Assembly (NCBI GenBank): GCA_003159795.1
Contig: PLPK01000081.1
Coordinates: forward strand, 1 to 59,312
Source of the DNA: Acidimicrobiaceae bacterium
Lineage (GTDB): Bacteria > Actinomycetota > Acidimicrobiia > Acidimicrobiales > Bog-793
Length of the DNA stretch: 59,312 nucleotides
Direction: 5' to 3'
Shown here: piece by piece, positions 55,087-59,304 of the stretch
Layout of the letters: each line of letters opens with the position of its first letter
How positions within the stretch are numbered: the first letter of the stretch is position 1
Notes under the pieces: model-generated
Seen by the model: only the letters and a program-made list of their open reading frames with translations
Databases searched by the model: none
What the model was told of the DNA's origin: nothing
Translations under genes and position numbers: made by a program

Positions 55087-55731
55087 TCACTTCTTCGCCG
55101 GCTCAAAGTACGGGTTGCGGCCGTCCTGGTGGGAGGTGACGTCGACGACGTCGACGATCTCGGGCACCGCCTGTCTGATCGCCACGGTGATCCCTTGGCC
55201 GAGCGTTACCGCCGCGAGCCCGCACCCCTGGCAACCGCCGGACAGGCGCAGGTAGGCGACGCCCTCGTCGACGGCGACGAGGTCAGCCCGGCCCCCGTGC
55301 ATGGCGATCTGGGGGTTCACCTGCTCCTCAAGCACGGCGATCACCGCGCGGGCGACCGGGCTCGTCACGTCGCCCTCCGCCGCGGCGGGCACGTTCGGCG
55401 CGGCCAACGGCGTGTTCGGGTTCACCATGACGAGCCCCTGCTCGCCGGCGTCGAGCGTCGCGCCGCGCACCTTGTCGACACTGTCGCCACCGACGACGAC
55501 GATGAGGTCCCCGTACGGGTAGGGGACGTCGCGCGGCCCGGCGTCGATTGGCGCCTCGAACCACATCTCGTAGACGTAGTCGCCGTTTGCCGCCCCGGTC
55601 ACCTCGACGAAGAGCGCCAGGCTCTCGGGATCTCCCTCGGCGGCGCGGGCCCCGAGGATCACGGCCCGCGCGGCGTCCGTGACCGTGAGAACCCGTTCGG
55701 GGCGCAGTCGTTCGCTCGCGTCGTCCGCCAC
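55087..55731 (-). CDS. nfuA: NfuA-like Fe-S cluster carrier
   Basis: The 214-residue protein joins a degenerate A-type (HesB-like) N-terminal domain (about 1-105) to a NifU C-terminal domain with the cluster motif LSGGCQGCGLAAVTLGQGI (CxxC). The A-type domain lacks the usual cysteines, as in E. coli NfuA. It would carry [4Fe-4S] clusters to target enzymes, complementing the SufCSU genes at the other end of the window. The start is a GTG at 55731. It lies 50 bases upstream of aroC on the same strand and diverges from the ATP-grasp gene. Confidence 0.85.
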   Translation of the reverse strand: MADDASERLRPERVLTVTDAARAVILGARAAEGDPESLALFVEVTGAANGDYVYEMWFEAPIDAGPRDVPYPYGDLIVVVGGDSVDKVRGATLDAGEQGLVMVNPNTPLAAPNVPAAAEGDVTSPVARAVIAVLEEQVNPQIAMHGGRADLVAVDEGVAYLRLSGGCQGCGLAAVTLGQGITVAIRQAVPEIVDVVDVTSHQDGRNPYFEPAKK

Positions 55732-55808: not shown

Positions 55809-57086
55809 ATGACACGCGTCCTTCTCGTCCTGCCGTCGTCGACGTACCGCGCGACCGAGTTCCTCGCCGCGGCGACGCGACTGGAAGTCGACGTCGTGAC
55901 CGGATCGGACGCCCCCCAGGCGATGGCCGGCGCCCTGCCGGACCGGTTTCTCGTCCTACCGCTCGATGACCCATCGGCCGCGGCCGACACGGTGGCGTCG
56001 TTCCACTCGCTAACACCCCTCGACGCGGTCGTCGCCGTCGACGACGTGGGCGCGCTCGCCGCGGCCGCCGCCGCCGAGCGACTCGGTCTCGCGAGGAACC
56101 CGGCCGCGGCGATCGCCGCGACCCGGGACAAGGCCGTGATGCGGCAGCTGCTGCGGCGGGCCGGGGTCCGCCAACCGCCCTTCGAGATCGCCGCGACGAG
56201 CCCCGACGAGCCCGGCGCCGTCGCCGCGGCCGGCGCCCGTCTCGGCTACCCGGTCGTCGTGAAGCCGTGCTCGCTCTCGGCGAGCCGCGGAGTCATCCGC
56301 GCCGACGACGAAGGGAGCGCCCGGGAGGCGGCAATCGCGGTGCGCCACATCGCCGTCGCCGCCGGCCGGCCCGCCGACGAACCGCTCCTCGTCGAGTCGT
56401 TCGTCCCGGGCGACGAGGTCGCTCTCGAAGGGCTCCTCACCGCCGGCCACCTCGAGGTACTCGCCGTCTTCGACAAGCCCGACCGGCTCGACGGACCGTT
56501 CTTCGAGGAGACGATCTACGTCACCCCCTCCCGCCACCGGGCCGCGGTCCTCGCCGAGCTGCGCGCCACGGTCGAGGTCGCCTGTGCCGCCCTCGGCCTC
56601 GTCGATGGTCCCGTCCACGCCGAGGCCCGTCTTGCGCCAACGGGATCGGATCCCGGTGCACGGGTCGTCATGCTCGAGGTGGCGGCACGCACGATCGGCG
56701 GCAGGTGCTCGAAGGCGCTGCGCTTCTCGTCGGGACGGTCGCTCGAGGAGCTCGTCCTCGCCCACGCCCTCGGACTCGACCTCGGCCTGGCGGAAGCCCG
56801 GCTGCCGGGCGCCTCGGGCGTGATGATGCTCCCCGTCCCCGCCTCCGGCCGCTTCGCCGGCATCGACGGAGCCGACGCCGCCCTGCGCGTTCCCGGGGTG
56901 TGGGGTCTCGAGGTGACGGTCCCCGTCGGCGGGACGCTCACGGCGTGGCCGGCCGGGGACCGCTATCTCGGGTTCCTGTTCGCCCGGGCCGAGCGCCCGG
57001 ACCAGGTCGAGTCGGCGCTGCGGCACGGCTTCGGCTCGCTCACCGTGCGCGTCGACACCGAGATCGCCGCCGGAGCGGGCGGGTGA
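55809..57086 (+). CDS. ATP-grasp carboxylate-amine ligase-like protein
   Basis: The 425-residue protein has a pre-ATP-grasp domain (VLLVLPSSTYRATEFLAAA, VVAVDDVGALAAA, RNPAAAIAATRDKAVMRQLL). The ATP-grasp core follows, with GYPVVVKPCSLSASRGVIRA (lysine), LLVESFVPGDEVALEGLL and the metal-binding VMLEVAARTIGG. This pattern is shared by amino-acid and peptide ligases such as L-amino acid ligases. The product is unknown. Its stop overlaps the radical SAM start as GTGA, so the two are made together. Confidence 0.85.
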   Translation: MTRVLLVLPSSTYRATEFLAAATRLEVDVVTGSDAPQAMAGALPDRFLVLPLDDPSAAADTVASFHSLTPLDAVVAVDDVGALAAAAAAERLGLARNPAAAIAATRDKAVMRQLLRRAGVRQPPFEIAATSPDEPGAVAAAGARLGYPVVVKPCSLSASRGVIRADDEGSAREAAIAVRHIAVAAGRPADEPLLVESFVPGDEVALEGLLTAGHLEVLAVFDKPDRLDGPFFEETIYVTPSRHRAAVLAELRATVEVACAALGLVDGPVHAEARLAPTGSDPGARVVMLEVAARTIGGRCSKALRFSSGRSLEELVLAHALGLDLGLAEARLPGASGVMMLPVPASGRFAGIDGADAALRVPGVWGLEVTVPVGGTLTAWPAGDRYLGFLFARAERPDQVESALRHGFGSLTVRVDTEIAAGAGG

Positions 57087-58561
57087 GCCGGGTCCTTCTC
57101 GTCTCGACCTACGAGCTCGGCGCACAGCCGCTCGGCCTCGCCTGGCCGGCGGCCGAGCTCACCAGGGCCGGCCACGAGGTGCGCAGCGTCGACCTCGCCG
57201 TCGAGCCGTGGCCGGCCGCCGACGTCGACTGGGCCCAGGCCGCCGCCTTCTCCGTCCCGATGCACACCGCCCTGCGGCTCGCGCTCGCGGCGATCGACCG
57301 GCTGCGCGCGACGCGCCCCGGCGTGCCGGTCGCGCTCTACGGCCTGTACGCCCCGGTGGCGGCGGCAACCGGCGTCCTCGGCGAGGGCGACCTCGCGGTC
57401 GCCGGCGAGACCGGTGCCGCCCTCGCGGGCTGGCTGGCGGGAAACGGCCCGGCGGGGCGCCCGGAGGCGGCGGCCATCGACCTCGGGCAGGCGCGGGCCA
57501 CAGGGGCGGACGGGGTCGTGCTCCCGCGGCGCGCGGGGCTCCCCGGTCTCGAGGCCTACGCGCGCCTCGTCACAGCCGACGGCGACGTCCTCGTCGGGAC
57601 GGTCGAGGCGAGCCGGGGCTGCAACCACCGCTGCCGACACTGCCCGGTCCCCGTCGTCTACGCCGGACGGTCGCGCGCCGTCCCAGAGGAATCGGTGCTC
57701 GCCGACGTCGACGGCCTCGTCACGGCCGGTGCCGGCCACGTGCGCTTCGCCGACCCCGACTTCCTCAACCGCCCGACCCACGCGCTTCGGGTCGCACGGG
57801 GCCTCCACGCCCGGCACCCCGGCGTCACGTTCGACGCGACGATCAAGGTCTCGCATCTGCTGCGGCACCGCGACGTCGTCGCCGAACTCGCCACGCTCGG
57901 CCTCGTCTTCGTCGTCTCGGCCTTCGAGTCGACGAGCGACACCGTGCTGCGCAGGCTGGACAAGGGCCACACCGGCCCCGACGCGGGCCGCGCCGTGGCG
58001 GAGCTGCGCGAGGTGGGCGTCGAGATCCGGCCCTCGCTTTTGCCGTTCACACCGTGGACCCGCCGCCAGGACCTGGTCGACATCGTCGATTTCGTCGCCG
58101 CGTTCGACCTCGTGGCGAACGTCGACCCGGTCCAGTACTCGATCCGCCTCCTCATCCCGCCGGGCTCGCTCGTGCTCGACGCCGACGACCCAGTTCTCGC
58201 CCGCCGCCTGGGAGGATTCGACGCCGCCTTGCTCAGCTACCGATGGTCGGCCGAGGACCCGCTCCTCGACGAGCTGCAGGCCGAGCTGGCCGCCCGCACA
58301 GAGCGCGCCGCCGAAACGGCGGAGCCGGTCGCAACGACCTACGCCGCCGTACGCGCCCTCGTCTTCACCCGCCTCGGCCGGCGGGACCCCGGTCCCCCGG
58401 AGCCCGTCGCGACCCGCGGCCCCGACCCGGCGAGGCGCCCGCACCTCAGCGAGCCGTGGTTCTGCTGCGCCGAACCGACGCGGCATCAGCTCGCCGGTGT
58501 CGGCGCAGCCCCGGTAACGTTCGGCCCGTGTCCATCCCCGACGACGCGCACGAGTGGGTGA
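57083..58561 (+). CDS. B12-binding-type radical SAM protein with CCAEP tail
   Basis: The 492-residue protein has an N-terminal cobalamin-binding-like Rossmann domain (VLLVSTYELGAQPLGLAWPA; 1-145) without an obvious D-x-H-x-x-G motif. The radical SAM site is C180/C184/C187 in RGCNHRCRHCPVP. Near the end is WFCCAEPT (C461, C462), the tail that defines CUAEP/CCAEP-tail radical SAM proteins, some of which carry selenocysteine. Here both codons are TGC, so it is the cysteine form. The function of the family is unknown to me. The start GTG overlaps the ATP-grasp stop, and the 3' end overlaps the next gene by 34 bases. Confidence 0.88.
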   Translation: MSRVLLVSTYELGAQPLGLAWPAAELTRAGHEVRSVDLAVEPWPAADVDWAQAAAFSVPMHTALRLALAAIDRLRATRPGVPVALYGLYAPVAAATGVLGEGDLAVAGETGAALAGWLAGNGPAGRPEAAAIDLGQARATGADGVVLPRRAGLPGLEAYARLVTADGDVLVGTVEASRGCNHRCRHCPVPVVYAGRSRAVPEESVLADVDGLVTAGAGHVRFADPDFLNRPTHALRVARGLHARHPGVTFDATIKVSHLLRHRDVVAELATLGLVFVVSAFESTSDTVLRRLDKGHTGPDAGRAVAELREVGVEIRPSLLPFTPWTRRQDLVDIVDFVAAFDLVANVDPVQYSIRLLIPPGSLVLDADDPVLARRLGGFDAALLSYRWSAEDPLLDELQAELAARTERAAETAEPVATTYAAVRALVFTRLGRRDPGPPEPVATRGPDPARRPHLSEPWFCCAEPTRHQLAGVGAAPVTFGPCPSPTTRTSG

Positions 58562-59304
58562 GCTTCGGCGACCCGGACGAGGACCGCACCTGGGTCATCG
58601 ACGTGACGTTCCTGGCGAGCGCGTGGAAATGCATCTACTTCGAGGGCTGCCAGGGGGTCCTCACGGGGCCGGCGGCCGAGCTCGTCGAGGGCTGCTGCAG
58701 CTACGGCGCCCACCTCGCGGACAAGAAAGACGCCCGGCGCGTGCAGGCCGCCGCGGCGCGACTCACCCCCGCCCAGTTCCAGCACCTCAAGCGGGCGCGG
58801 CGCGTCGGCGTCTTGAAGCGCCAGGGTGAGGACCTGACGACGCGGCTCACAGACGGGGCCTGCATCTTCCTCAACCGGCCGGGCTTCCCCGGGGGTCCCG
58901 GGTGCGCCCTCCACCGCGCCGCCGTCGAGGCGGGGGTGCCGGCGCGCCTGTACAAGCCCGACGTCTGCTGGCAGCTCCCGGTGCGCCGGGAGGACGCGAC
59001 CGACGAGGGTGGGCACGTCACCTCGACGGTCACACAGTGGGAGCGGCGCCACTGGGGACCGGCCGGCGACGAGTTCCACTGGTGGTGCACGGAGGCCCCC
59101 GAGGCCTTCGTCGGGACCGGGCCCGTCTACTTGAGCCTCGCCGACGAACTCGGCACGCTCGTCGGGCCGGCGGTCTACAAGATGATCGTCGGCTACCTAG
59201 ACAGCCACGGCGCCCACCGCCAGCCCCTTGCGCACCCCGCCGTGCGACGGGCGGGAGATCAGGTCCGGTCCTCGGCGTCTTCCTCGAGTTCGTCGGGCTC
59301 GTAG
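58528..59304 (+). CDS. Cys-rich conserved protein, possibly metal-binding, unknown function
   Basis: The 258-residue protein has eight cysteines in a conserved-looking order: WKCIYFEGCQG, EGCCSYGAH, DGACIFLN, GPGCALH, KPDVCWQLP and HWWCTEAPEAF. This resembles the YkgJ/DUF3109 type of zinc- or iron-binding protein, and I recall similar actinobacterial hypotheticals. The start is a GTG inside the radical SAM gene. The last residues (SSASSSSSSGS) are probably not constrained; they read antisense through the acidic tail of the next minus-strand gene. The overlap suggests joint action with the ATP-grasp and radical SAM proteins. Confidence 0.7.
   Translation: MSIPDDAHEWVSFGDPDEDRTWVIDVTFLASAWKCIYFEGCQGVLTGPAAELVEGCCSYGAHLADKKDARRVQAAAARLTPAQFQHLKRARRVGVLKRQGEDLTTRLTDGACIFLNRPGFPGGPGCALHRAAVEAGVPARLYKPDVCWQLPVRREDATDEGGHVTSTVTQWERRHWGPAGDEFHWWCTEAPEAFVGTGPVYLSLADELGTLVGPAVYKMIVGYLDSHGAHRQPLAHPAVRRAGDQVRSSASSSSSSGS

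What the first reader, a model, noticed from the sequence alone, without database searches (positions are those of the whole stretch)
55809..59304. ATP-grasp, CCAEP-tail radical SAM and Cys-rich protein trio
An amino-acid-ligase-like ATP-grasp gene is coupled (GTGA) to a B12-type radical SAM protein with the C-terminal WFCCAEPT tail, which overlaps a third gene with eight ordered cysteines. A ligase, a radical enzyme and a putative metal-binding protein in overlapping frames look like a pathway making or modifying a small peptide-like molecule or cofactor. The tail exists as CUAEP (selenocysteine) in other organisms, so its cysteine pair probably has a catalytic or redox role. I know of no assigned function.
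Basis: partly seen in the sequence, partly recalled or inferred. Interest (0 to 1): 0.7.

Follow-up and report, generated by a model that had tools for sequence, protein, structure and literature searches.

The report
Ligase–radical-SAM pair with Cys/Sec tail
Two overlapping bacterial genes, an amino-acid ligase and a radical enzyme with an unusual Cys-Cys (elsewhere Cys-selenocysteine) tail, nearly always occur together across many uncultured phyla and look like the core of an undescribed small-molecule pathway related to, but apparently not, arsenic-antibiotic biosynthesis; the third, cysteine-rich gene is only a neighbour.

Summary
In detail: ATP-grasp gene A (55809-57086), GTGA-coupled radical SAM gene B (57083-58561, tail WFCCAEPT), and gene C (from 58528, eight cysteines, all invariant in 20 homologues). 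B passes NCBIfam NF040546 (518 vs cut-off 500), a family without assigned function; its nearest named relative is ArsL. In 396 genomes of the phylum, 23 of 24 with B also have A (Fisher p about 2e-28), even where unlinked; A occurs without B in 10. A is a BL00235-like L-amino-acid ligase, usually beside an NfuA-type Fe-S gene; a DUF169 gene often lies near B. C does not belong: it is spread through the phylum independently of B (p = 0.30), and in three B-less relatives Nfu and C are direct neighbours. In relatives B's second tail cysteine is an in-frame TGA; SelB is found in 12 of 14 of those genomes and 3 of 15 Cys-tail ones. ArsL-type plasmid clusters can also carry a BL00235-like ligase, but arsenic genes are essentially absent from CUAEP loci. 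Best guess: A makes an amide or dipeptide-like compound and B works on the same molecule by ArsL-like SAM cleavage, the tail holding the acceptor atom. The linkage is shown; the chemistry is inferred.

The parts
55809..57086 (+). Gene A: LAL-type ATP-grasp ligase (amino-acid/dipeptide ligase-like), core of the module
   Evidence: PF13535 + LAL_C2; best PDB match L-amino acid ligase BL00235, 3vot, E 5.5e-31; orthologues at 37-59% identity in other families and phyla; present in 23 of 24 B+ genomes
57083..58561 (+). Gene B: CUAEP/CCAEP-tail radical SAM protein, core of the module
   Evidence: NF040546 518 bits, cut-off 500; next best ArsL NF040542 236 bits, cut-off 450; AF2 mean pLDDT 93.9
57620..57643 (+). 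CxxxCxxC radical SAM [4Fe-4S] motif of B (C180, C184, C187)
   Evidence: invariant in 89 aligned homologues
58457..58480 (+). C-terminal tail WFCCAEPT of B; second Cys is Sec (TGA) in relatives
   Evidence: invariant W459, C461, C462, P465 (Sec entered as Cys); in-frame TGA in relatives; mean pLDDT of residues 451-470 about 92
55087..55731 (-). NfuA-type Fe-S carrier, divergent neighbour of A; recurrent partner in many phyla
   Evidence: PF01106; beside A or B in many loci, and beside A where B is elsewhere or absent; but Nfu genes also occur in genomes without B
58528..59304 (+). Gene C: eight-Cys protein, distant DUF3109-like; neighbour, not judged part of the pathway
   Evidence: alignment of 20 with 8 invariant Cys; weak DUF3109 match in 9 of 20 homologues; independent of B

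Best explanation
A and B are the two-enzyme core of an undescribed small-molecule pathway; C is a neighbour. A is an L-amino-acid-ligase-type ATP-grasp enzyme that activates an amino-acid carboxylate as acyl phosphate and joins it to an amine, making a dipeptide or amide. [quoted passage not shown] The NfuA-type protein supplies or repairs the Fe-S cluster; DUF169 is an accessory. Shown: A-B co-occurrence, Nfu and DUF169 linkage, relation to ArsL, Sec variants, exclusion of C, no arsenic genes nearby. Inferred: order of the steps, ACP chemistry, role of the tail. Unknown: the product. Confidence by step: A-B act in one pathway about 0.9; A is a ligase about 0.8; ArsL-like chemistry of B about 0.4.
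For: A in 23 of 24 B+ genomes and in 10 of 372 B- genomes of the same 396. In a chosen set, A orthologues in all 21 B+ genomes, including many where A is not beside B, and no match above about 148 bits in 11 B- genomes. A lies beside Nfu even where B is elsewhere or absent. DUF169 is single-copy and within about 7 kb of B in 11 of 11 B+ genomes that have it. A's best solved relative is BL00235, which makes Met-Gly and Met-Met (PMC6920838). ArsL is B's nearest named family, about 30-35% identical to typical members, with the tail Cys pair aligned (C461/C462 = ArsL C420/C421). Three of four RCCLKC/ArsL-type plasmid clusters viewed also carry an ATP-grasp gene; the one tested has BL00235 as best solved relative. 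ArsL's ACP transfer to As(III) is proposed in PMC8552651.
Against: B is only about 30-35% identical to ArsL and fails its cut-off, so the SAM cleavage mode may differ. A occurs without B in 10 genomes, several at least 96% complete, so A has a B-independent role, and the order may be A then B, unlike the ArsL scheme. The ATP-grasps of ArsL clusters are only about 23-29% identical to A, roughly as far as BL00235, so the pairing may be independent. B's best fold match, AprD4, works through a 5'-deoxyadenosyl radical (own knowledge). The model gave me no coordinates, so tail-to-cluster distance was not measured.
Confidence: 0.42

Rival explanations
1. B is a canonical radical SAM enzyme: a 5'-deoxyadenosyl radical abstracts hydrogen from A's product (epimerisation, dehydration, dehydrogenation or cross-link), and the tail Cys-Cys/Sec pair is a redox or hydrogen-donor couple.
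For: Best fold match is the diol dehydratase AprD4; Cys/Sec exchange is typical of redox positions; A without B but almost never B without A suits B as a tailoring enzyme acting after A.
Against: ArsL is by far the closest named family (236 bits, next 44) and shares the tail Cys pair.
Confidence: 0.3
2. B inserts sulfur (or another cluster atom) from a sacrificial Fe-S cluster bound by the tail, rebuilt by the neighbouring NfuA, as in LipA/MiaB.
For: Nfu recurs beside A or B in many phyla; LipB-LipA-PDH genes follow A-B in Chloroflexota; cysteine-desulfurase-like and DsrE-like neighbours recur.
Against: Only two invariant Cys besides the radical SAM motif, too few for a usual auxiliary [4Fe-4S] cluster; Nfu follows A even where B is absent and Nfu also occurs in B-less genomes.
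Confidence: 0.12
3. Arsenic pathway: the pair makes an arsinothricin-like organoarsenical or its peptide.
For: ArsL kinship and ATP-grasp genes in three of four ArsL-type clusters viewed.
Against: 20 proteins of arsenic clusters searched against about 2.0 Mb around CUAEP genes: no ArsM, ArsB, ArsC, ArsH, ArsN1 or ArsQ; one ArsR-like and two aquaporin hits. The RCCLKC tail is absent.
Confidence: 0.08
4. One reading: C is a metal-binding member of the pathway.
For: Overlapping frames; C follows B in most window-family loci with enough flank (9 of 12).
Against: C is in 82 of 392 phylum genomes without enrichment with B (7 of 24, expected 5.0, p = 0.30); in G075, G198, G209, G293 and G345 C and B are apart; in G287, G298 and G413 Nfu and C are neighbours without A-B.
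Confidence: 0.06

Closest known systems
NCBIfam NF040546, CUAEP/CCAEP-tail radical SAM (seleno)protein
   Same: B passes the curated cut-off and has the tail; relatives carry Sec
   Different: The family has a name but no function; partners A, Nfu and DUF169 were not found described in the papers searched
ArsL (NF040542, RCCLKC-tail radical SAM, arsinothricin biosynthesis)
   Same: Colinear homologue, about 30-35% identity to typical members, tail Cys pair aligned; three of four plasmid clusters viewed carry an ATP-grasp gene
   Different: 236 bits vs cut-off 450; different tail; essentially no arsenic genes around CUAEP loci; CUAEP found in many phyla
L-amino acid ligase BL00235 (PDB 3vot) / BacD
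   Same: A: ATP-grasp_4 + LAL_C2, match over residues 22-405 of 425, shared GPFFEE motif
   Different: A is a distinct tight family with an invariant Cys300 (IGGxC) and a radical SAM partner
AprD4 radical SAM 1,2-diol dehydratase (PDB 6fd2)
   Same: Closest solved fold of B (TM 0.62)
   Different: 20% identity; no Cys/Sec tail is known to me for AprD4 (own knowledge)

Membership tests
NF040546 rSAM_CUAEP | curated score at least 500 bits | tested here: met
   518.1 bits
NF040546 rSAM_CUAEP | C-terminal W[FY]C[CU][AS]EP tail | tested here: met
   WFCCAEPT at 58457-58480; a W[FY]C[CU] tail was found in all but two B genes of the set, both truncated
ArsL (NF040542) | curated score at least 450 bits | tested here: not met
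   236.2 bits
ArsL (NF040542) | RCCLKC C-terminal tail | tested here: not met
   WFCCAEPT plus extension; only the CC pair is shared
ArsL (NF040542) | arsenic gene neighbourhood (ArsM, ArsQ, ArsR, ArsN1) | tested here: not met
   only one ArsR-like and two aquaporin hits around all CUAEP loci
ArsL (NF040542) | ACP transfer from SAM to As(III) | not testable with these tools
   needs biochemistry
L-amino-acid ligase (ATP-grasp) | ATP-grasp domain with LAL_C2 C-terminal domain | tested here: met
   PF13535 81.4 bits, PF18603 41.5 bits, both above cut-off; BL00235 best PDB hit
L-amino-acid ligase (ATP-grasp) | dipeptide synthesis from two free amino acids | not testable with these tools
   needs enzyme assay
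Cobalamin-dependent (B12) radical SAM | B12-binding domain above cut-off and DxHxxG motif | tested here: not met
   PF02310 26.2 vs 32.1 bits; motif absent on reading residues 1-170; enzymes without the motif can still bind B12
Selenoprotein (relatives of B) | in-frame TGA at a Cys position plus SelB in the genome | tested here: met
   TGA tails; SelB over cut-off in 12/14 TGA-tail vs 3/15 Cys-tail genomes. The window gene itself is Cys and its genome has no SelB match
DUF3109 (gene C) | PF11307 match | tested here: inconclusive
   no hit for the window protein; 9 of 20 homologues match, best 7.5e-6

The most novel reading that the evidence does not exclude
A widespread non-arsenic pathway in which an ArsL-type enzyme with a selenocysteine/cysteine tail makes a carbon-heteroatom bond by ACP-radical chemistry and a dedicated amino-acid ligase builds the product into a dipeptide-like cofactor or signalling compound.
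Probability: 0.3. Interest if true: 0.85.

Novelty: new variant of a known kind. Interest (0 to 1): 0.6.

Why it matters
An orphan radical SAM (seleno)protein family seen in at least ten phyla gains a near-obligate partner enzyme, a nearest named relative and testable chemistry. If B uses ACP-radical chemistry, this rare SAM cleavage mode (ArsL, Dph2) would be far more widespread than known, and a new natural product or cofactor is implied in poorly cultured bacterial lineages.

Tried and rejected
C as pathway member: rejected by phylogenetic spread and by B-less loci with the same backbone. Arsenic pathway: no arsenic genes beyond one ArsR-like and two aquaporin hits. B12 dependence: not supported. 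C by fold: no PDB match with E below 1, and none convincing by sequence profile. DUF169: no solved relative and no informative paper. Viral contigs: no B; plasmids: only Thermomicrobium roseum for CUAEP, none for A at E 1e-30. Literature for CUAEP/CCAEP: nothing. PDH/LipA link in Chloroflexota: real in those loci but read as lineage-specific. SECIS: short hairpins after the TGA in some relatives, but z-scores are mostly weak, so not used as proof.

Full report
What is there. The three frames are as described. Gene A (55809-57086) is an ATP-grasp protein with ATP-grasp_4 and LAL_C2 domains. Its stop overlaps the GTG start of gene B at 57083 as GTGA. B (57083-58561) has the radical SAM motif C180-x3-C184-x2-C187 and the tail WFCCAEPT and passes NCBIfam NF040546 with 518 bits against a cut-off of 500; the next family is ArsL, NF040542, with 236 bits against 450, then 44 bits. 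Gene C (58528-59304) has eight cysteines, invariant in 20 homologues, and no Pfam or NCBIfam match of its own below 0.01. The label 'B12-type' is doubtful: the B12-binding hit is below cut-off, there is no DxHxxG motif, and the best fold is AprD4.

Who goes with whom. The same 396 genomes of the phylum were searched for B and for A: 24 have B, 33 have A, 23 have both (Fisher p about 2e-28). The one exception, G080, has B at a contig end. In a chosen set A was found in 21 of 21 B+ genomes, including ones where A is not beside B, with nothing above about 148 bits in 11 B- genomes. Ten genomes have A without B; no B-like gene at E 1e-8 was found in them, and several are at least 96% complete. So B depends on A more than A on B. 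The genomes are mostly drafts, related genomes are not independent, and Fisher's p ignores that.

Neighbours. Of loci with at least 4 kb on both sides of B, the named set (45) has A in 29, Nfu in 28, DUF169 in 17, C in 2; the window family (12) has A in 10, Nfu in 11, DUF169 in 9, C in 9. Some loci in the wider counts are the same contig fetched twice. In several phyla Nfu, B, A and DUF169 lie in different orders on one strand (for example Planctomycetota B-Nfu-DUF169-A, Rokubacteria B-Nfu-A, Nitrospirota B-DUF169-A), which argues for function rather than inherited order. Where B is elsewhere or absent, A is still usually beside Nfu. Nfu itself is general: B-less genomes have it too. DUF169, where present in a B+ genome, is a single copy within about 7 kb of B (11 of 11); in the window's own genome it lies outside the window at contig position 65492-66223.

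C is not part of it. C was found in 82 of 392 phylum genomes and 154 of 198 genomes of the order, with no enrichment in B+ genomes (7 of 24, expected 5.0, p = 0.30). In G075, G198, G209, G293 and G345 C and B lie apart. In G287, G298 and G413, which lack A and gave no B match, the order is aroC-Nfu-C: the A-B pair is simply not there. Whether A-B was inserted or lost was not tested.

The tail. Of 128 B genes, all but two truncated ones have the tail. In many relatives the second Cys codon is TGA. SelB passes its cut-off in 12 of 14 TGA-tail genomes and 3 of 15 Cys-tail genomes, so TGA is read here as Sec; the two without SelB are incomplete drafts. The cultured Thermomicrobium roseum has WFC-TGA-AEP, and its annotated gene stops at that TGA. 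The AF2 model of B is confident through the tail, but I had no coordinates and could not measure its distance to the active site.

Relation to ArsL. B and ArsL-type proteins are colinear, about 30-35% identical for typical members, with 37 shared invariant positions in the sample, including the tail Cys pair. Of four ArsL/RCCLKC plasmid clusters viewed, three carry an ATP-grasp gene. The Alicyclobacillus one has BL00235 as best solved relative, as A does, but identity to A is about 23-29%, so common origin of the pairing is open. BL00235 makes Met-Gly and Met-Met (PMC6920838). ArsL's ACP transfer to arsenite is proposed in PMC8552651; a later paper cited in PMC12159101 supports it but was not itself read. 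Around CUAEP genes the arsenic proteins searched gave only one ArsR-like and two aquaporin hits.

How it most likely works. Inference, not shown: A ligates an amino acid to an amine; B cleaves SAM and modifies the same molecule or a building block, with the tail Cys-Cys/Sec holding or activating the acceptor; Nfu supplies clusters. The excess of A+ B- over B+ A- genomes suggests that A acts first or has an extra role. The main rival is ordinary 5'-deoxyadenosyl chemistry with a redox tail.

Novelty. The radical SAM family is named but I found no function in the papers searched (open-access library only). New here are the near-obligate ligase partner, the Nfu and DUF169 links, the removal of C and the ArsL comparison.

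Noticed in passing
L171 3433-4665, L173 3738-4961, L174 8458-9774: RCCLKC/ArsL-type plasmid clusters of Alicyclobacillus, Priestia and Pantoea carry an ATP-grasp gene beside arsenic genes, hinting at arsinothricin-like peptides.
   Followed up: partly
window 58528-59304 and relatives: The eight-Cys protein C is a phylum-wide, uncharacterised DUF3109-like family with no solved structural relative found.
   Followed up: partly
L090, L094, L096, L100, L102, L104, L107: In Chloroflexota the A-B pair is followed by LipB, LipA, AceE, AceF and Lpd genes; in some Acidimicrobiia AceE also lies beside B.
   Followed up: partly
L170 8935-10371: The Thermomicrobium roseum CUAEP gene is annotated as ending at the TGA that is probably Sec (WFC-TGA-AEP).
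   Followed up: partly
L118: A contig titled Bifidobacterium breve MAG carries a CUAEP-family match; probably a mislabelled or contaminated bin.
   Followed up: no
L061, L062, L059, L085, L087, L088, L139: A small DsrE-like gene lies on the opposite strand right after B in several loci, some of them Solirubrobacterales/Thermoleophilia.
   Followed up: no
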